Below, piece after piece: positions 10,851-27,448 of a stretch of DNA of 36,392 nucleotides (positions are counted from its first letter, which is position 1; each line of letters opens with the position of its first letter). The DNA is from a virus. The position numbers and the translations under genes were made by a program. The stretch is taken from positions 1 to 36,392 of IMG/VR virus record IMGVR_UViG_3300035698_003521; one strand, given 5' to 3'. Under the pieces are notes generated by a model. It had not been told where the DNA came from and searched no databases. It was given only the letters and a program-made list of their open reading frames with translations.

Positions 10851-11255
10851 ATGACAAAAGATCAACCACAAGAACTTAAAAAAGATAAAGATCAAGAAAG
10901 ACTTGATCATCTTTACGAGTTATTTCTAGAAATATGTGATCAGATGATAGAGGAATCATATATTATTACTGATGGTGTAATAGTTTCCTCTGTTGTTATG
11001 GATAAGAGAGTTGGCCATTTGCTTTCTAGAAAAATGAAATTGAGATATGGTAAAGAATGGGGAGTTTATACGATCTCCGAAGCAATCAAATATGCCCATA
11101 AAGTTGGATATGATACTGCCTTGATGGAATTGTATAGAAAATCGCGGCAAGAGGTTACACCAGAAACTGATTCTGGTATAGAGGGAGATGAGAGTAATGG
11201 AGAAGATTCGGAACTTCGCGAACGTGAACTTCAATCGGAAGAGGAATCAAGTTGA
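10851..11255 (+). CDS. unknown protein with acidic tail, 134 aa
   Basis: Not recognised. The first ~20 residues are highly charged (Lys/Asp/Glu). A helical centre follows (LDHLYELFLEICDQMIEES, then VGHLLSRKMKLRYGKEWGVYTISEAIKYAHK), and the last ~35 residues are strongly acidic and disordered-looking (EGDESNGEDSELRERE...EEESS). The gene overlaps the 5' end of the DNA polymerase gene by about 59 bases in another frame, and that overlap encodes the acidic tail. Such overlap suggests co-ordinated translation with the polymerase. The acidic tail could mimic DNA or dock onto a DNA-binding partner. Confidence 0.6.
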   Translation: MTKDQPQELKKDKDQERLDHLYELFLEICDQMIEESYIITDGVIVSSVVMDKRVGHLLSRKMKLRYGKEWGVYTISEAIKYAHKVGYDTALMELYRKSRQEVTPETDSGIEGDESNGEDSELRERELQSEEESS

Positions 11256-14200
11256 TTATACTTATTATGAAAAAGAATCCGGTAAATGGGTAAGAAAAGA
11301 AGGAACATATTATATTGAAAATGAAGTATTTGTTCCAAATCAAAATGCTGTTAAATCTTTTCGTGATTCTAAATTAAAGGATCATGGATCTGGATTTAAA
11401 TGCGATGTCTACGGAAATCCTATCTTAGAACCCGTGTGTACAAAGTTTTATGATAAGAATACACTCCCACCAAATGTAAAAAATTGTCCAAAACGTTTTG
11501 GGTTTGATATCAAACCGGAAGTTAAGTTTCTTTCTGAGAAGATGGAATTTGATGAAGAGAACGATGAGATCCCACCACTTCGTATTCAGTATATGGATAT
11601 CGAAACCATTGTAGATGATGGACCATTCTTAGAGGGGTGGTCAGTTGGACCAGATCGTTATGGGTATGATCGCGGCGGCATTCTTCTCATCTCCACATAC
11701 GATAATTATGATGATAAAGTAATCGTCTTTGGCGCACAACCTATCGCAGATCATAATTTCCAAAAGGGTTTGAATGTCGAATATATCCTTTGTCGAGATG
11801 AAGCAGATATTATCAAACAATATATGCAATATCTATATAATACAGATCCAGATATTATTTCTGGATGGAACTGCTTAGAAGAAAATCAAACAGTTTGGTT
11901 GGGTGATAGAATCGTTAAAATTAAGAATATTGATCTAAAATCAAAAAATAATAAAAATATACCACTTATAACCTCCGGTAATATCATAAATAAACACGAG
12001 TATACTGGAGAAAAAATTATGTATAAAATCAAAACATCTATTGGTAAAGAATTAAATTGCTCTATTGATCATAAGCACTTTGTTCGTATAAAGGACAAAT
12101 CTCAATATAAGAACTTAAAATCTATGAATCAAAATGAAGAATTGGAAATGACAACAAAAGAAATTATGGATGTGTGTGACGATAAAGATTTGTACCTTGA
12201 GTTTATATTCAATAAGAATAATAACCAAGATACAACGTGGAGGGATTTATTTTCTTCACAATCATTCTGGGATAGACTTATTTCTAATCCATTAATAGAT
12301 TTTCCTGTAAAAAATAAAATGATAATCAATTTAGTAAGATGTGATAGAGAGATTAAACAAGATTATTGTTGGGGCAAGTGTTTTTGGAAGAAGTCTTTTG
12401 AGTGGAACTACAAAAGAAATGTTCATTTGTTGGATGATTATGATATCAAGACAGAAATATTAAACTATGATGTTTTTGATTTTACTTTTAGGAAGAGAAG
12501 ATATTCTATTAAATTGGATGATAAGATTACAAACGATCTTTTAAAGTTTATTGGGTTTATTTTTACTGATGGTAGTTGGGATCATAAACGAAATACATGT
12601 TCCGTCACACAAAAATACAATGATGTTTTAATTGGATATGAGTCTATATTAAAAAAAGAATTCAATCCAAGATCAACAACTGTTAAACAAACAAAAGATG
12701 GTTGTTATATTATGAAGTTTTCGGATTCTTCAATTGCTATTATTTTAAATTTGATATATGAATATAGAGATGAACGATTTTGTAAGAATCCAGAGATAGA
12801 ATCTTTGTCCCTATTGTCTAGGGATCAGTTTGTAAATATGTTTTCTGGAATGGTTGATGGTGACGGTTCTATCCTTGATAATGGTTTATGTCTTTATAAT
12901 TTTGACTGCGCAAAATTTGACTTTTTAAATAATATACATGAACTTCTTTTATGGAATGATGTATTCTCTTATATTAATAAAAATAACGTATATATCCCAT
13001 TTGTTAAAAAGAATAAGTATTTTATCTCGACTATTAGAGACTTGTTGTTTCATAAACCGAGAAAGAATAAATTAGAAGGAATAATATTCAGAGAGAATAA
13101 GAATTCAAAGAATAAGATATTGAATAAATGTTATGATGATAATCACGGATTTATTAAAATATCATCCGTGGAAAAAACACAACATAAAGTGAGAATGTAT
13201 GATATTGAAACATCAAATCATTCATTTTATACCTCTGGGATTAAAACACACAACTGTTATCAATACGATTTTCCATATATCATAAACCGTATTAAGTTCT
13301 TTATTGATACTGGAAGATTCGATAAATCTGCCTTGTTTAATTTTGGAAGAGGTAATGCATTTATTCAGAATAATTATCGCAGATTTTACCTTAATGGTAT
13401 CACGGTTATTGATTATCTTGTACTTTATAAGAAATTTGAGTTAAAACCAAGACGATCCTATAAGTTGTCAGATATTGTTGAAGTAGAAGAAGTTTCTGTT
13501 GATGGACAAGGTAAGATGAAGTATAGTGGTTCTATTCGTGACTTTGCCAATAATGATTGGACAGGATTTGTTAAGTACTGTGTTCAAGACTCAATGTTGG
13601 TAAAACAAATTGAAGATAAGAAGGAATTGATTAATACCTTCACAATGCTTTGTTATATGGCAGGTGTTCCATTTCATCTTGCAATCTCTGGTGAAGTATC
13701 TTGGATGAAAATTCATGATTCCTCAATTTATAGATATTGTCAGGAACATAACAAGGAACTACCAGAGAATGAAGAACCACCAGAAAATCTAGGTAAATTC
13801 GCAGGTGCTTATGTTATGGCTCCAAAAATTGGAGTATATGATTATGTAACTGTATTCGATGTTGCATCTCTATATCCTTCATGTATTCGTGCCTTAAATA
13901 TCTCTACTGACTCTTATCGTGGTCAGATAGTAATGAATAAAGAGGATTTCTCTGTTGGATCTGTGCCAGATCAAAAAGGACCATTCACAATCGAATTTTA
14001 TGATCCTCTCTGGTTATCTCTAGGTGAGTATGAAAAGACACTAATTGAAAGAGAGAATGGTAAGTTACCACCTAATGAAAGAAAAGATCCTAATAGTATA
14101 GGACCATACATAAAGAAATTTAGTACATTTGAAGAGATGCACAAGTTCCTAAAGAAGTTTGATATGTGTATTGCTGCTAATGGATCAATCTTCTCTAAGA

Positions 14201-14925
14201 GAACCCGTGGTGTGATGCCAGCATTACTAGACGAGTGGATTGATATTCGTAAGAAGAATAAGAAATTATACTTTGAGTTCAAAGGAAAGTATCAGACAGA
14301 AAAGGATAAGAAAAAGAAGAAGAGGTATAAACAAATGTCTGATAGATATAACACTATCCAGATGGTATATAAAATCCGATTGAACAGTTTGTATGGATTT
14401 ATCGGTGCAAAGTTCAGTAGATTCTTCAACATTCATCAGTCAGAGGCAGTAACCGTTACTGGTAAGTATGTTATTCGATCCACCATCGCCAAGTTACGTG
14501 AAAAGTATGGGGATTCGTTTGTATTCTATTGCGACACTGACAGCTGCCGAGGTGATTCTCTCCTTAGATTAGAGGATGGTGATAAAACAATAGAGGATGC
14601 CTTTGATAATATAAAAGATGATGATTTTGATTCATATAGAGAAACTTATGATGGTAGATCATTCGTATATCCTAAAAATCTTAGTTTACCTTATTACAAC
14701 GAAAAGATAAAAACGGTAGAAAATGGAAAAGTAGACTTTATTGAAAGACATTTTGTTAAAAAGAAGATGTATAAAATAAAGACAAGTGGTGGAAAAGAAG
14801 TTGTAGTTACAGAAGATCATTCTATAATGATTCTAGAGAATGGTGTATTAGTTGAGAAAAAACCTAATGAAATTAACAAAAAAGATAAAATTATTACTCT
14901 GAAACCACCGTGTCTCCATAAATAG
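11197..14925 (+). CDS. gp43: gp43-like family B DNA polymerase, N-terminal part with one full intein and an N-terminal split intein
   Basis: The 5' fragment of the replicative polymerase. Exo I is MDIETIVDDG (11590s); Exo II is split by intein 1 and reads SGWN|CYQYDFPYI after splicing; Exo III is YCVQDS. Motif A is FDVASLYPSCIRALN, motif B is KIRLNSLYGF, and motif C stops at YCDTD (14539-14541), where the second intein starts with Ser. The ORF then runs 127 codons of N-intein to TAA. The rest of the polymerase is at 15883-16902. Extein pieces total about 951 aa after both splicing steps (T4 gp43 is 898). Start taken as ATG 11197 with GGGAG nine bases upstream; ATG 11188 abuts that site. Confidence 0.93.
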   Translation: MEKIRNFANVNFNRKRNQVDYTYYEKESGKWVRKEGTYYIENEVFVPNQNAVKSFRDSKLKDHGSGFKCDVYGNPILEPVCTKFYDKNTLPPNVKNCPKRFGFDIKPEVKFLSEKMEFDEENDEIPPLRIQYMDIETIVDDGPFLEGWSVGPDRYGYDRGGILLISTYDNYDDKVIVFGAQPIADHNFQKGLNVEYILCRDEADIIKQYMQYLYNTDPDIISGWNCLEENQTVWLGDRIVKIKNIDLKSKNNKNIPLITSGNIINKHEYTGEKIMYKIKTSIGKELNCSIDHKHFVRIKDKSQYKNLKSMNQNEELEMTTKEIMDVCDDKDLYLEFIFNKNNNQDTTWRDLFSSQSFWDRLISNPLIDFPVKNKMIINLVRCDREIKQDYCWGKCFWKKSFEWNYKRNVHLLDDYDIKTEILNYDVFDFTFRKRRYSIKLDDKITNDLLKFIGFIFTDGSWDHKRNTCSVTQKYNDVLIGYESILKKEFNPRSTTVKQTKDGCYIMKFSDSSIAIILNLIYEYRDERFCKNPEIESLSLLSRDQFVNMFSGMVDGDGSILDNGLCLYNFDCAKFDFLNNIHELLLWNDVFSYINKNNVYIPFVKKNKYFISTIRDLLFHKPRKNKLEGIIFRENKNSKNKILNKCYDDNHGFIKISSVEKTQHKVRMYDIETSNHSFYTSGIKTHNCYQYDFPYIINRIKFFIDTGRFDKSALFNFGRGNAFIQNNYRRFYLNGITVIDYLVLYKKFELKPRRSYKLSDIVEVEEVSVDGQGKMKYSGSIRDFANNDWTGFVKYCVQDSMLVKQIEDKKELINTFTMLCYMAGVPFHLAISGEVSWMKIHDSSIYRYCQEHNKELPENEEPPENLGKFAGAYVMAPKIGVYDYVTVFDVASLYPSCIRALNISTDSYRGQIVMNKEDFSVGSVPDQKGPFTIEFYDPLWLSLGEYEKTLIERENGKLPPNERKDPNSIGPYIKKFSTFEEMHKFLKKFDMCIAANGSIFSKRTRGVMPALLDEWIDIRKKNKKLYFEFKGKYQTEKDKKKKKRYKQMSDRYNTIQMVYKIRLNSLYGFIGAKFSRFFNIHQSEAVTVTGKYVIRSTIAKLREKYGDSFVFYCDTDSCRGDSLLRLEDGDKTIEDAFDNIKDDDFDSYRETYDGRSFVYPKNLSLPYYNEKIKTVENGKVDFIERHFVKKKMYKIKTSGGKEVVVTEDHSIMILENGVLVEKKPNEINKKDKIITLKPPCLHK
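11872..13254 (+). other. intein 1: contiguous LAGLIDADG intein in the Exo II motif of DNA polymerase
   Basis: In-frame insertion of 461 codons. It begins with Cys (CLEENQTVWLGD, block A), has block B around GKELNCSIDHKHFV (His in SIDH), and ends MYDIETSNHSFYTSGIKTHN before Cys+1 (CYQYDFPYI). Two LAGLIDADG-type motifs are visible: LLKFIGFIFTDGSW (12538-12579) and FVNMFSGMVDGDGSI (12832-12876), the usual two-motif homing endonuclease. The insertion lies between SGWN and the exonuclease aspartate segment, so it disables proofreading until spliced out. Confidence 0.92.
14542..14922 (+). other. split intein, N-terminal half, in polymerase motif C
   Basis: 127 codons starting with Ser (SCRGDSLLRLEDGDK). 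This Ser1 assignment is preferred over Cys because YCDTD + SVFLNYG restores the canonical YxDTDSV motif without an extra Ser. Block B is VVVTEDHSIMI. It ends at a TAA (14923-14925), with no C-terminal HN. The partner half is at 15883-16008. The same DTD|S insertion point is used by inteins of several archaeal family B polymerases, whose inteins can also begin with Ser. Confidence 0.9.
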
Positions 14926-14945
14926 ATAATAGAAAGGAGATACTT

Positions 14946-15881
14946 ATGTCTGGTAAAAAGAAAATGAAGAGTAAAAGAAATTACAAAACGTGGTTAGAAC
15001 TTGGTTGTTCTGAGGAAGATGCAAAGTTTGAAGCAAGTAAGAGGCAACCGGGAAGATTTGAATATTTTAGATACTTTAAGGGTTTTTCTGAAGAAGAAAG
15101 TAAAGAAAAGGTAATAGAGTGGAGAGAAAAAAATACAAAACGAACAAAGAAAAATTATATAGAGAAATTTGGACAAGATGAAGGGTTAAGGAGATGGAAT
15201 CAATATAGAGAAAAACAAGCCAAGTCTAATACTTTTGAGTATAAGAAAGAAAAATACGGATGGACAGAAGAAGAATTTAGAGAATATAATAGATCTAGAT
15301 CTGTAACCGAAGAGAATATGATAAAGAGGTATGGTGAGTATGAAGGTAAAATGAGATGGGTGAATTATATTGAAAGACAAAGATATACTTGTAGTAAAGA
15401 GTATTTTATAGAAACCTATGGAGAAAAAGATGGTTATAAAAAATATACCGAATTTTGTTATGTAAGAGATAATGTAATTAAACAAAAACGACTTGGTATT
15501 AGAAGTTATATATCAGAGGAATTATTTTCTATACTTGATAATTTAATAGATGATTCGTGTTATTGGGGAGAAAATGAATTTAAATTTATAAAATCAGAAG
15601 GTGGGTGTTTCCATGTTGATTTCTTCAATAAAAATACAGGAAGAGTAATTGAGTTTTATGGAGATGTTTTTCATGCTAATCCAAATATTTATAAGACCGA
15701 AGACCAGATCTTGTTTTTTAAGAAATCAGTTAAAGAAGTTAGAGAAAAAGATAAGAGAAGAATTAATGATATTCTTAGTTATAAAGAGGTTTCAGACGTT
15801 CATATAGTTTGGGAAGATGAATATAGAAAAAGAAAACCAGAAGTTATTTCTTATTGTTTGAATTTTGCAAAAGGTAAATGA
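14946..15881 (+). CDS. free-standing homing endonuclease, EDxHD / Vsr-like, inside the fractured polymerase gene
   Basis: A 311-aa protein lying between the two polymerase fragments, with its own ribosome site (AAAGGAGATACTT-ATG). The N-terminal ~175 residues contain three similar units, YIEKFGQDEGLRRWNQYREK (71-90), MIKRYGEYEGKMRWVNYIER (125-144) and FIETYGEKDGYKKYTEFCYV (154-173), probably DNA-binding repeats. The C-terminal nuclease domain has FHVDFF (D225), the signature IEFYGDVFHANP (E236, D240, H243) and HIVWEDE (W289, E290). This is the nuclease type found with split inteins in marine metagenomes. It would cut intein-less polymerase genes to spread the whole cassette. Confidence 0.9.
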   Translation: MSGKKKMKSKRNYKTWLELGCSEEDAKFEASKRQPGRFEYFRYFKGFSEEESKEKVIEWREKNTKRTKKNYIEKFGQDEGLRRWNQYREKQAKSNTFEYKKEKYGWTEEEFREYNRSRSVTEENMIKRYGEYEGKMRWVNYIERQRYTCSKEYFIETYGEKDGYKKYTEFCYVRDNVIKQKRLGIRSYISEELFSILDNLIDDSCYWGENEFKFIKSEGGCFHVDFFNKNTGRVIEFYGDVFHANPNIYKTEDQILFFKKSVKEVREKDKRRINDILSYKEVSDVHIVWEDEYRKRKPEVISYCLNFAKGK

Positions 15882-15882
15882 T

Positions 15883-16008
15883 ATGAATTTTGATATAGAA
15901 GAAGTAGAAGAAGTCGAATGTTTGGGTGTTTGTGAAGAATATGTATATGATATTGGTATGAGAGAATCACCACACATCTTTTTTGCTAATGATATATTGG
16001 TTCATAAT
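15883..16008 (+). other. split intein, C-terminal half (DNA polymerase)
   Basis: 42 codons with its own ATG. Block F/G features are EYVYDIGM and the terminal HIFFANDILVHN, with the C-extein nucleophile Ser+1 at 16009. With the N-half of 127 residues the total is 169, a typical mini-intein size. The first residues are acidic (DIEEVEEVE), like the charge complementarity seen in other natural split inteins, while the last part of the N-half (KKPNEINKKDKI) is basic. Confidence 0.9.
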
Positions 16009-16902
16009 TCTGTATTCTTAAACTATGGTGAGACTCTTAAGAGAAGAGGATTTGATCTTTCTGATAAAAAAGCATGTGTGGAAGAATGTATTCGTATGGA
16101 TAAAGATGTTTCTGAAGTAATCATAAAGAATTGCGATTACGTCTCTAATAATATTATGAATACTGATAATATATATTCATTTGAAAGTGAAGAAGTAATT
16201 GAACGTATGCTTATTACTTCTAAGAAAAAGTATATTGCTAGGGTTGCTTTTGATAAGACTACAAATGAATATCCAGATGAAGACTATGTAGTTAAGGGTT
16301 TAGAGTTTCAAAAGTCTAATCTATCTGATCCAGTTAAAAAGTTCTTAAGAAGTACTACTAAGAAAATAATGGATGGTATAGGTGCTGATGATTTGATAAC
16401 TTTACTTCGAGATGAATTTTATAAAATGGAAACTCGTCCCGTCGATGATATTGCATATTATCAAGGTGTTAAGAATATTGAGAAGTATCAAAAAATGAGC
16501 AGAGTCGAGATTAAAGATTTAGTAAACCAGAAAGCAGAGACAGAATTCCCTAAACATTGCCCATATCACGTTGCTGCTGCAATCTCTTTAAATACATTGA
16601 TTCTGGCAGACAAAGACCTTTCTGATATGTCAACCGTAACAGAGGGAACAAAAGCAGGGATAGTATTTGTAAATAGATCAAACATGTTTGGCGTAAAAGC
16701 AATTGCTTATACGGGTGAGTGGAATCCTAAGTTGTTTGAATATTTTTCCATTGATGTAGATTATATGTTTAATAGATTGATTCTCGGTCCACTAGAACCT
16801 TCGATTAAGGCCGCAGGATTCAAACTTTCAACATCAGATATTTTGGGTTATGATTTTGTCGGTGTTGATAACGAATGTATACAACGTAGTCTGTTTACTT
16901 AA
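15883..16902 (+). CDS. gp43: DNA polymerase C-terminal fragment fused to the C-terminal split intein
   Basis: Codons 1-42 are the C-intein, ending ANDILVHN. Codon 43 onward is the polymerase C-terminus beginning SVFLNYGE, which completes motif C (DTD+S). The basic SKKKYIARV segment corresponds to the family B KxKKRY region, followed by the thumb (to residue 339). The start is ATG 15883, one base after the endonuclease stop, with AAAAGG as ribosome site; a TTG start at 15865 is possible but has no benefit. After trans-splicing the C-extein contributes 297 residues. The protein cannot be an active polymerase alone because motifs A and B are on the other polypeptide. Confidence 0.93.
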   Translation: MNFDIEEVEEVECLGVCEEYVYDIGMRESPHIFFANDILVHNSVFLNYGETLKRRGFDLSDKKACVEECIRMDKDVSEVIIKNCDYVSNNIMNTDNIYSFESEEVIERMLITSKKKYIARVAFDKTTNEYPDEDYVVKGLEFQKSNLSDPVKKFLRSTTKKIMDGIGADDLITLLRDEFYKMETRPVDDIAYYQGVKNIEKYQKMSRVEIKDLVNQKAETEFPKHCPYHVAAAISLNTLILADKDLSDMSTVTEGTKAGIVFVNRSNMFGVKAIAYTGEWNPKLFEYFSIDVDYMFNRLILGPLEPSIKAAGFKLSTSDILGYDFVGVDNECIQRSLFT

Positions 16903-24637: not shown

Positions 24638-25663
24638 ATGTCAATCCAAGTACTGTCCGAATACACTAGAATATCAAAATATAGCAAATACATCCCTGAG
24701 AAGAAACGACGAGAGACTTGGAAAGAACAAGTAGATCGTGTTTTTGATATGCATTTAGAATATTATGGAGAAAAGATAACCGAAAACGAAGATCTCCATG
24801 ATATGTTTAAATTTGCAAAGAAAATGGTTATGAAGAAAAAGGTTTTGGGTTCTCAGAGAGCATTACAATTTGGTGGAGATCCAATTCTAAAGAAAAACGA
24901 ACGTCTATATAATTGTACTGCGACCTATGCTGATCGACCTAGAGTGTTTCAAGAATCAATGTTCCTTCTTCTTTGTGGTGCAGGAGTTGGTTTCTCTATT
25001 CAAAAACACCATGTTGTTAAGTTACCATATATTATGCATCCAGAGGGAGAGACAGTAACGTATGAAATCCCCGATAACATTGAAGGTTGGGCAGATGCAA
25101 TTGGTGTTTTGCTCTCCTCTTACTTTTATAAAGATCAACCATTCCCTGAGTTTTATGGAAAGCGTGTTGAATTTGATTATAGTAAGATTAGACCATCTGG
25201 CGCACCATTATCTAGTGGATCGAAAGCTCCCGGTCCAGACGGTCTACGAGACTCCTTAGATAAAATTCGAGCATTACTAAATGATCTATTGAAGAAGCAG
25301 AAGAAACTTAAACCAATTAATGTTTATGATATTCTTATGCATCTTTCTAATGCAGTATTATCTGGTGGTGTTCGGAGGTGTCTTCCTGAATATTATGAAG
25401 TTTTAACAACAGATGGTTATAAAAAAATTAGTGATGTTGAAATTGGTGATAAAGTTATTATCTTAGGTGAGGAAAAGGAAGTAACCAACATATTCGACAA
25501 TGGTGTTAAGAATCTTATTAAAATAAACACCCCTGATGGATATCATGTCTCTACACCGAATCACAAATGGTTAGTATTTAACACTACAACAGAAAATGTT
25601 GAATTTGTGGAGGCGCAATCATTAGACACATCTATTCACAAATTATTGAAAGAAAGGAATTAA
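24638..25663 (+). CDS. nrdJ: class II ribonucleotide reductase NrdJ, N-terminal part with N-terminal split intein
   Basis: Codons 1-247 are the RNR N-extein ending LSGGVRR, and codons 248-341 are the N-intein starting CLPEYYEVLTTDGYKKISDV. The extein carries the first active-site region (RLYNCTATYADRP... and LLLCGAGVGFS) of the adenosylcobalamin-dependent family, which makes deoxynucleotides without a separate radical subunit. The C-terminal part is at 25841. The start has GAGGGAG seven bases before ATG. The ORF ends LLKERN-TAA. Splicing SGGVRR to S of the second part restores the SGGVRRSAT motif of class II enzymes. Confidence 0.92.
   Translation: MSIQVLSEYTRISKYSKYIPEKKRRETWKEQVDRVFDMHLEYYGEKITENEDLHDMFKFAKKMVMKKKVLGSQRALQFGGDPILKKNERLYNCTATYADRPRVFQESMFLLLCGAGVGFSIQKHHVVKLPYIMHPEGETVTYEIPDNIEGWADAIGVLLSSYFYKDQPFPEFYGKRVEFDYSKIRPSGAPLSSGSKAPGPDGLRDSLDKIRALLNDLLKKQKKLKPINVYDILMHLSNAVLSGGVRRCLPEYYEVLTTDGYKKISDVEIGDKVIILGEEKEVTNIFDNGVKNLIKINTPDGYHVSTPNHKWLVFNTTTENVEFVEAQSLDTSIHKLLKERN
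25379..25660 (+). other. split intein, N-terminal half, in NrdJ
   Basis: 94 codons: block A CLPEYYEVLTTDGYKKISD with Cys1, then VEIGDKVIILGE, and block B INTPDGYHVSTPNHKWLVF (His in TPNH). The partner is at 25841-25999. Insertion after SGGVRR is the position of NrdJ split inteins known from phage and metagenomic sequences. Confidence 0.92.
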
Positions 25664-25664
25664 T

Positions 25665-25838
25665 TTGGTATTTATTGGTGGTGGTGTATGCGCAAAGGAC
25701 ATCTGGTTGAAAGACAAAAAAAAGATAGATATTGCAACATCTAATGGATATTCTGTTTTGGTTGTGTGGGAAAATGAATTGAAGTCTGATTATGATTGTG
25801 TTAAAAGTAAAATCAAATCGTTTTTGTTAGGAGGGTAG
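25665..25838 (+). pseudogene. remnant of a Vsr-like/EDxHD homing endonuclease (57 aa)
   Basis: A TTG-initiated reading frame (AAAGG upstream) lies exactly between the RNR fragments. It encodes DIWLKDKKKIDIATSNGYSV followed by LVVWENE, which matches the C-terminal end of EDxHD/Vsr-like nucleases: a W-x-x-D-x-x-K helix, then a GYxVxVxWExE strand. Compare HIVWEDE in the intact enzyme at 14946-15881. The catalytic E...D..H part and all upstream repeats are absent, so the nuclease is lost; it is probably an eroded cassette. Its final codons GGAGGG supply the ribosome site for the next gene. Confidence 0.75.
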
Positions 25839-25840
25839 AT

Positions 25841-25999
25841 ATGAGATTCTTGGAAGTTGATGGTGTTGAGTTTGAATTGATTGATGTTTTAGATATAGAG
25901 GAATATGGTAAAGAACAAACCCATGATATAGAAGTGGAGGATGTTCATTGTTTTACTGCGAGAAATCCCAATTCTGGTCTAGAATCTATATCTCACAAC
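25841..25999 (+). other. split intein, C-terminal half (NrdJ)
   Basis: 53 codons with its own ATG after GGAGGG. Block F is THDIEVEDVHCFTA, and the end is SGLESISHN with Ser+1 at 26000. The full intein would be 94+53 = 147 residues. The last His-Asn and Ser+1 are intact, so splicing should be possible even though the endonuclease is eroded. Confidence 0.92.
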
Positions 26000-27448
26000 T
26001 CAGCAACCATTTGTCTCTTTAGTCCAGACGATAACGAGATGGCAACTGCTAAGACAGGTGATTGGTTTCATAGAGAACCCCAAAGAGCAAGATCGAATAA
26101 CTCTGCACTTCTTATCAGAGACGAGACTTCAAAGGAAGTTTTTAAAGCACTAATCGAAAACGTAAAAGAGTTCGGTGAACCGGGATTCATTTGGGCAGAA
26201 GACAAAGAAGCACTTTTCAATCCTTGTGCTGAAATTGGATTATATGCTTATGATGAAAATGGAAATAGTGGATTCTCATTCTGTAATCTATGCGAAATCA
26301 ATATGAAGAAGGTAAAGGACGAAGCAGATTTTTACGATGCATGTAAGGCGGCCGCCGTCCTTGGGACTCTTCAGGCAGGGTATACCAGCTTCCCATACCT
26401 CGGAAAAGTAACAGAAGATATTGTAAAGAGAGAAGCATTACTTGGTGTCTCTATGACAGGAATGATGGATACGCCAGAAATTGCTTTTAACGAAGAAATA
26501 CAAAAGAGTGGTGCAAAGATGGTTAAAGCAGTTAACCAGAAGATCGCAAAGATCATAGAGATCAATCCTGCTGCTCGTCTTACCTGTGTTAAACCGTCGG
26601 GATCATCTTCGTGTATCCTTGGAACAGCATCAGGTATTCATCCACATCATGCTAAAAGATATTTTCGCAGAGTCCAAGCCAATAAACTAGAAGCACCAGT
26701 AAATCACTTCAAAGGAATAAATCCTCTTGCTGTAGAAGACTCTTGTTGGAGTGATACTGATTATATTATCACTTTCCTTTGTGAAATCCCAGCTGGTGCA
26801 AAATCCAAGAACCAACTTTCTGCAATCGAAATGTTAGAGAATGTAAAACTAACTCAGAACAATTGGGTAAAATATGGTACGGTATCAAAATACTGTACCC
26901 AACCGTGGTTAATTCATAATGTTAGTAATACAATTACGGTTATGGATAATGAATGGGAAGAAGTTGCTGATTACATTTACAAGAATAGAAAGAACTTTTC
27001 TGGTATCTCTCTTCTACCTGTTAGTGGTGATAAGGATTTCCCACAGACTCCATTCGCTTCTGTTCCCTATACAAATGATGTAGTTAGAGAGTATGGTGAG
27101 TGTGCTTTGTATGTTAGTGGTCTTATATCAGAAGCAGAGAATAACTTTTCTAATCTTTGGAAGGCCTGCGATTTCCTTTTAGGGATCAATGGTATTCCAA
27201 ATAAGACTGATGAAATGTATAAATTTAAGGAAAGATGTGAGAAGTTTGCAGAGAGATATCTAGAAGGAAATATTAAGAAACTCACTTATGTTATGAAGGA
27301 TATTAATAATATCAAACTTTGGATGGATCTAAAAAGAGAATACAAAGAAGTAGATTACGAAGGTATGATTGAAGAACAAGATAATGTTAATCATGGTGTA
27401 GAAACAGCTTGTTCAGGAGGTGCTTGCGTCTTAACTTTAGATATATAA
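25841..27448 (+). CDS. nrdJ: class II ribonucleotide reductase NrdJ, C-terminal part with C-terminal split intein
   Basis: Codons 1-53 are the C-intein, ending LESISHN. From codon 54 (SATICLFSPDD) it is the RNR catalytic part: NPCAEIGLYAY (127-137) is the finger-loop signature with the active-site Cys and Glu, and KPSGSSSCILGTASGIHP with RYFRRV marks the class II phosphate-binding region. The C-terminus has a Cys pair (ACSGGACVL), typical of the reducing tail that is recharged by thioredoxin-like donors. The extein parts together give about 729 residues, normal for NrdJ. Neither fragment alone would hold a full active site. Confidence 0.93.
   Translation: MRFLEVDGVEFELIDVLDIEEYGKEQTHDIEVEDVHCFTARNPNSGLESISHNSATICLFSPDDNEMATAKTGDWFHREPQRARSNNSALLIRDETSKEVFKALIENVKEFGEPGFIWAEDKEALFNPCAEIGLYAYDENGNSGFSFCNLCEINMKKVKDEADFYDACKAAAVLGTLQAGYTSFPYLGKVTEDIVKREALLGVSMTGMMDTPEIAFNEEIQKSGAKMVKAVNQKIAKIIEINPAARLTCVKPSGSSSCILGTASGIHPHHAKRYFRRVQANKLEAPVNHFKGINPLAVEDSCWSDTDYIITFLCEIPAGAKSKNQLSAIEMLENVKLTQNNWVKYGTVSKYCTQPWLIHNVSNTITVMDNEWEEVADYIYKNRKNFSGISLLPVSGDKDFPQTPFASVPYTNDVVREYGECALYVSGLISEAENNFSNLWKACDFLLGINGIPNKTDEMYKFKERCEKFAERYLEGNIKKLTYVMKDINNIKLWMDLKREYKEVDYEGMIEEQDNVNHGVETACSGGACVLTLDI

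What the first reader, a model, noticed from the sequence alone, without database searches (positions are those of the whole stretch)
24638..27448. NrdJ fractured by a second split intein, with only an endonuclease remnant left
N-intein (25379-25660) and C-intein (25841-25999) flank SGGVRR|SAT, the class II RNR motif. The gap holds 57 codons that match only the C-terminal tip of an EDxHD/Vsr-like nuclease. This looks like a later stage of the same life cycle seen at the polymerase: the mobility enzyme is decaying while the split genes persist, so the fracture is fixed and trans-splicing is essential.
Basis: partly seen in the sequence, partly recalled or inferred. Interest (0 to 1): 0.85.

Follow-up and report, generated by a model that had tools for sequence, protein, structure and literature searches.

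The report
Split virus gene, worn-out homing nuclease
In this phage the gene for a vitamin-B12-dependent ribonucleotide reductase is cut in two by a split intein that should rejoin the two proteins, and of the mobility nuclease that normally sits between the halves only its last 57 codons are left, while related phages show the same site empty, filled by a one-piece intein, or cut with the nuclease still whole.

Summary
NrdJ is encoded in two ORFs (24638-25663, 25841-27448). A 94-aa N-intein and a 53-aa C-intein flank SGGVRR|SAT, with C1, TxxH, terminal HN and +1 Ser all present. A phage whose NrdJ is 70% identical (L002) has the empty site with that exact sequence. The 177-nt gap encodes the last ~50 residues of a Vsr-type (EDxHD) homing endonuclease: PHROG 22677, E=1e-8, profile positions 302-340 of 353; 48.7 bits against a best of 8.9 in 5,000 shuffles. 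Every invariant catalytic residue is lost.

They do: L010, L017 and L106 have the same split intein at the same site with intact 364-403-aa nucleases. L107 and L108 have one-piece mini-inteins there, other phages have LAGLIDADG inteins, and others are empty.

The remnant's last codons carry the strongest ribosome-binding site tested in the window, which serves NrdJ-C. That may be why this end survived. 'Fixed' and 'essential' are not shown: the nearest relative has both the nrdJ and polB sites uninterrupted.

This is a degenerate 'fractured gene' (Dassa 2009) at a site other than that of the published NrdJ-1. Trans-splicing is inferred, not tested. An assembly artefact cannot be excluded.

The parts
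24638..25378 (+). NrdJ (adenosylcobalamin-dependent class II RNR) N-extein, 247 aa, ends ...AVLSGGVRR
25379..25660 (+). N-intein, 94 aa: starts C1 LPEYYEV, block B TPNH; TAA stop at 25661-25663
   Evidence: joined intein matches gp41-1 intein structure 6qaz, E=2.8e-5
25665..25838 (+). 57-codon remnant of a Vsr/EDxHD-type homing endonuclease (homology spans about 25686-25802); catalytic part missing
   Evidence: PHROG 22677 E=1.1e-8, profile 302-340/353; own HMM 48.7 bits
25829..25834 (+). AGGAGG ribosome-binding site for NrdJ-C, inside the last codons of the remnant, 6 nt before the ATG
   Evidence: anti-SD duplex -10.7 kcal/mol; only 0.8% of ATG/GTG/TTG in the window reach -9
25841..25999 (+). 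C-intein, 53 aa: block F DIEVEDVHCF, ends ISHN
26000..27448 (+). NrdJ C-extein, 482 aa, starts +1 Ser; carries NPCAE, SFC and C-terminal CSGGAC
11188..16902 (+). Companion case: PolB cut by a second split intein (halves 11188-14925 and 15865-16902) with an intact nuclease of the same family at 14946-15881

Best explanation
This is a 'fractured gene' after loss of its mobility enzyme. A split intein sits in nrdJ at SGGVRR|S. The two halves are translated separately, NrdJ-C from its own strong ribosome-binding site. The N- and C-inteins should associate, splice in trans and yield a full-length NrdJ of 729 residues. A free-standing Vsr-type homing endonuclease once lay between the halves and spread the whole insert into empty nrdJ alleles. 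One large deletion has removed its DNA-binding part and catalytic core, and the 57-codon end that remains carries the ribosome-binding site for NrdJ-C. Shown: the anatomy, the splice residues, the homology of the remnant, full nucleases at the same site elsewhere, and the empty site in a relative. Inferred: trans-splicing, past homing, and the reason the tip was kept.
For: Joined flanks equal the uninterrupted L002 sequence. All splice residues are intact and the N+C length (147 aa) matches the contiguous mini-inteins at this site (149 and 154 aa), so nothing is missing from the splicing domain. Joined intein matches gp41-1 intein (6qaz, E=2.8e-5). Remnant homology: E=1.1e-8 and 48.7 bits against 8.9 in shuffles. 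Three phages have N-half, full nuclease and C-half at this exact site (L010, L017, L106). Invariant residues D313, I321, E322, G325, H329 and near-invariant D326, N331, P332 lie upstream of what is kept. L017 nuclease model matches Vsr (Z 11.2) and I-Bth0305I (Z 10.3). Patchy distribution: window and L002 (empty) are sisters at 100/100 and split forms are scattered on the NrdJ tree, while the intein tree groups this split and mini family at 100/99. NrdJ-C ribosome-binding site -10.7 kcal/mol. Of 19 viral stretches with the tip motif, the eight that are true nucleases all keep the catalytic motif, so a bare tip is unusual.
Against: No splicing test. The sequence comes from a virus record in IMG/VR with no reads available, so a collapsed population variant or misassembly of about 1 kb cannot be excluded. 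Only one genome with the remnant was seen. Whether NrdJ is needed in infection is unknown.
Confidence: 0.86

Rival explanations
1. The halves work as a gene in pieces without splicing: the two proteins associate and form an active reductase while the intein parts are inert, as reported for NrdA of phage Aeh1.
For: Aeh1 precedent cited in PMC3653736; both halves keep their reductase residues.
Against: Aeh1 has no self-splicing element, whereas here both intein halves keep every splice residue and full length; unspliced, a 94-aa and a 53-aa tail would hang inside the conserved SGGVRRSA motif.
Confidence: 0.07
2. Assembly or population artefact: the real phage carries a full nuclease and the contig collapsed two alleles or dropped about 1 kb.
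For: Relatives carry 364-403-aa nucleases here; the remnant tip is not eroded, so the deletion is either recent or artificial.
Against: The 177-nt gap is self-consistent: the N-ORF ends where those of relatives end, the tip is in one open frame, and NrdJ-C has a strong ribosome-binding site. No single base error could restore a nuclease.
Confidence: 0.1
3. The 57-codon ORF is a kept, translated small gene (leader peptide or regulator) rather than debris.
For: No stops, near-invariant residues kept; a moderate ribosome-binding site before the TTG (-5.6 kcal/mol); it overlaps the ribosome-binding site of NrdJ-C.
Against: It is only the terminal helix-strand-helix part of a nuclease domain; no relative with a bare tip was found; a TTG start is weak evidence.
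Confidence: 0.15
4. The fracture was never mobile in this lineage: the split form arose by internal breakage of a one-piece mini-intein such as those of L107 and L108.
For: Mini-inteins of the same family occupy the same site.
Against: The gap holds nuclease sequence in the position and orientation of the free-standing nucleases of L010, L017 and L106; split and mini forms separate on the intein tree, weakly (75/91).
Confidence: 0.04

Closest known systems
Fractured genes with split inteins and a free-standing endonuclease (Dassa et al. 2009, PMC2677866; not held here, known from citing papers PMC3653736, PMC6892783, PMC12350094 and from memory)
   Same: DNA-metabolism gene of a phage broken by a split intein; nuclease of the Vsr/EDxHD type between the halves; two nrdJ cases were reported among the GOS data
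   Different: Here the nuclease is reduced to its last 57 codons, and the insertion point is SGGVRR|S
NrdJ-1 split intein
   Same: Split intein in an nrdJ product, +1 Ser
   Different: NrdJ-1 lies at NPC|SEI (PMC13123727), a different, later point in the protein
gp41-1 split intein (PDB 6qaz, 6riz)
   Same: Nearest solved intein by sequence, E=2.8e-5
   Different: Different host gene and insertion site
I-Bth0305I (3r3p) and Vsr (1cw0) nucleases
   Same: Fold of the C-terminal domain of the intact relative in L017, Z 10.3 and 11.2
   Different: The window remnant keeps only the end of that domain, without catalytic residues
PolB split intein with nuclease in jumbo phage MIJ3 (PMC6892783)
   Same: Same arrangement as the companion PolB case in this window, with very similar splice blocks (TEDHSIM, VYDIGM, ILVHNS)
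   Different: A different gene; nuclease intact; described there as HNH
Aeh1 NrdA gene in pieces
   Same: RNR large subunit split by a homing nuclease
   Different: No intein, no splicing

Membership tests
Fractured gene (Dassa type) | Conserved enzyme gene broken in two ORFs on the same strand | tested here: met
Fractured gene (Dassa type) | Split intein halves with complete splicing residues at the break | tested here: met
   C1, TPNH, HN, +1 Ser; length as in contiguous homologues
Fractured gene (Dassa type) | Intact free-standing endonuclease gene between the halves | tested here: not met
   only the last 57 codons remain, catalytic residues absent; met in L010, L017, L106
Split intein (trans-splicing) | Ligation of the exteins in trans | not testable with these tools
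   needs protein expression
Vsr/EDxHD homing endonuclease | Vsr-like fold | tested here: inconclusive
   met for the intact relative in L017 (model Z 11.2 to 1cw0, 10.3 to 3r3p); the remnant is too short to carry the fold, sequence homology only
Vsr/EDxHD homing endonuclease | Catalytic residues (conserved D, E, D, H of the family) | tested here: not met
   they lie upstream of the retained part
Adenosylcobalamin-dependent RNR (NrdJ, monomeric type) | Family match and active-site cysteines | tested here: met
   TIGR02505 partial matches E=2e-27 and 6e-26 (bits under the whole-protein cut-off, as each ORF is half a protein), 1l1l match of the relative L002, cysteine motifs in place

The most novel reading that the evidence does not exclude
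The locus catches a mobile fractured gene turning into a permanently split host gene: the nuclease is gone, the leftover end has become the translation start region of the second half, and trans-splicing alone now keeps the reductase working. With empty, one-piece, split-with-nuclease and split-without-nuclease forms all at one codon, the site would allow the origin and fate of split inteins to be reconstructed.
Probability: 0.45. Interest if true: 0.65.

Novelty: new variant of a known kind. Interest (0 to 1): 0.5.

Why it matters
How natural split inteins such as cyanobacterial DnaE arose is an open question; fractured genes with a nuclease between the halves were proposed as the link. A split intein that has lost its nuclease, at a site where all other states survive in relatives, is a candidate for the later step and can be tested directly. 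The intein pair is also a candidate tool, since gp41-1 and NrdJ-1, from the same kind of locus, are among the fastest known.

Tried and rejected
Group I or II intron in the gap: 177 nt only, and no Rfam match anywhere in the window. Internal promoter or terminator: no excess over shuffles. Cellular NrdJ with an intein at this motif: the pattern scan of genome contigs gave 27 stretches, none in an NrdJ frame; the motif is narrow, so this says little about cells. Bare nuclease tips elsewhere: a scan for the tip motif gave 19 stretches, of which the 8 true nucleases all keep the catalytic motif. Dassa 2009 full text is not held, so whether it lists this exact site or any nuclease-free locus could not be checked. 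Sequence search of the nucleases against the PDB gave only sub-threshold matches, to 3r3p and Vsr among others; the fold comparison was needed. Selection tests (dN/dS) were not run: the nearest NrdJ is only about 70% identical. The direction one-piece to split, or split to one-piece, could not be rooted.

Full report
OBSERVATION. The window is a 36,392-bp virus record. The N-ORF ends at TAA 25661-25663, the gap ORF ends with TAG 25836-25838 and NrdJ-C starts at 25841. The N and C halves are in the same reading frame, the gap ORF in another.

HOST GENE. Both halves match the adenosylcobalamin-dependent RTPR family and PHROG 367. Joined at the splice point they give a 729-residue protein with all reductase cysteine motifs in place. 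L002, from another virus contig, is about 70% identical and encodes the same protein uninterrupted as 741 aa, reading AVLSGGVRRSATICLFSPDD across the point of insertion. By the alignment to ribonucleoside triphosphate reductase 1l1l, the insertion falls between R319 and S320.

INTEIN. C1, the TPNH of block B, the terminal HN and +1 Ser are present. The two pieces sum to 147 residues. One-piece inteins of the same family at the same site have 149 (L108) and 154 (L107) residues, so the splicing domain is complete. The joined sequence matches the gp41-1 intein (6qaz) at E=2.8e-5.

REMNANT. The gap ORF matches PHROG 22677 at E=1.1e-8 over profile positions 302-340 of 353. The same family matches the intact nuclease inside the polymerase gene (1.3e-41) and the nucleases of L010 (4.9e-22) and L017 (8.7e-16). 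An HMM from 40 nucleases gives 48.7 bits; the best of 5,000 shuffles is 8.9; no window ORF other than the polymerase nuclease (193 bits) comes near. In the 40-sequence alignment the invariant residues D313, I321, E322, G325, H329 and the near-invariant D326, N331, P332 (L017 numbering) all lie before the retained part; W352, D355, K358 and W373 are within it and are kept (remnant sequence aligned). An AlphaFold model of the L017 nuclease has a confident C-terminal domain that matches Vsr (1cw0, Z 11.2) and I-Bth0305I (3r3p, Z 10.3), which supports the 'Vsr-like' label for the family. The remnant keeps only the last part of that domain.

RELATIVES AT THE SAME CODON. A scan for SGG[VI]RRC in viral contigs and follow-up gave these states. 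Split intein with a full nuclease: L010 (403 aa), L017 (394 aa) and L106 (364 aa; the record of L021). L007 has a 466-aa nuclease, but its N-half is broken by a frameshift and no C-half was found in its record. One-piece mini-inteins: L107 (record of L020) and L108 (record of L013). Longer one-piece inteins, apparently of LAGLIDADG type: L008, L014, L015/L019, L016 and probably L012; also a one-piece intein in Thermus phage phiLo. Empty sites: L002, L003, L004, Rhizobium phage RHph_I1_18 and Pseudaeromonas phage KLEP7. In the intein tree the SHN-ending family (split and mini) separates from the others at 100/99. In the NrdJ tree the window is sister to the empty L002 at 100/100 and split forms are scattered, which fits gain and loss by homing. 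The record of L002 also has an uninterrupted polB (open frame 957 aa) where the window has its second split intein.

HOW IT LIKELY WORKS. NrdJ-C has an AGGAGG six bases before its ATG, with an anti-SD duplex energy of -10.7 kcal/mol; only 0.8% of ATG/GTG/TTG triplets in the window reach -9. This AGGAGG is inside the last codons of the nuclease remnant; in L106 the same position also carries a strong site (-9.2). So NrdJ-C can be translated on its own, and loss of the last nuclease codons could have cost the phage its reductase. This is an inference for why this end was kept; L010 and L017 show no such site. The two proteins would then be joined by trans-splicing, which is inferred from the intact intein halves. 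The nuclease is predicted dead, so the insert can no longer spread by itself, unless helped by another nuclease.

'Decaying' is better described as one large deletion: the tip has no frameshift or stop and keeps its conserved residues. 'Fixed' and 'essential' are not shown. A gene-in-pieces RNR that works without splicing is known in Aeh1 (PMC3653736).

KNOWN OR NEW. Fractured genes with split inteins and EDxHD nucleases were described by Dassa et al. 2009, with nrdJ cases among them (PMC3653736). The published NrdJ-1 lies at NPC|SEI (PMC13123727), so this is another site. I could not read Dassa 2009, so I cannot say that this site or a nuclease-free locus is absent from it. The homing-cycle model (PMC1654191; PMC7765530) predicts nuclease loss after spread; here it is seen for a split intein with the intact form at the same codon in relatives. 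I file it as a variant because one defining feature of a fractured gene, the intact endonuclease gene, was tested and is not met.

LIMITS. Single record, no reads, no splicing test, no near-identical relatives for a selection test.

Noticed in passing
window 11188-14925: The polymerase ORF also carries a one-piece intein (Pfam Intein_splicing over residues 254-689), so the 36-kb contig holds three inteins in two genes: one contiguous and two split.
   Followed up: partly
window 14946-15881: Intact free-standing nuclease of PHROG 22677 between the halves of PolB; the PolB split intein has blocks very similar to those published for jumbo phage MIJ3.
   Followed up: partly
L010 7000-8063: The nrdJ gene of L010 appears to be broken a second time, at VKPSGNA|C ... 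SHN|SVILGTSSG, by another split intein, so it would lie in three pieces.
   Followed up: no
L107 and L108 (reverse strand): Both NrdJ proteins carry a second one-piece intein at NPC, next to the NPC|SEI point known from NrdJ-1.
   Followed up: no
L006 1163-1338: NrdJ of KLEP7 is empty at SGGVRR but split near NP|CxE with a 176-nt gap without an Rfam match; perhaps a short intron or a deleted insert.
   Followed up: partly
L022, L023: Large terminase genes fractured by a split intein with a nuclease of the same family between the halves; the A1 search found at least 469 stretches encoding relatives of this nuclease in viral contigs.
   Followed up: partly
L007 9771-10848: The N-half with N-intein is broken by a frameshift at about 10680, before a 466-aa nuclease: sequencing error or a truly broken copy.
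   Followed up: no
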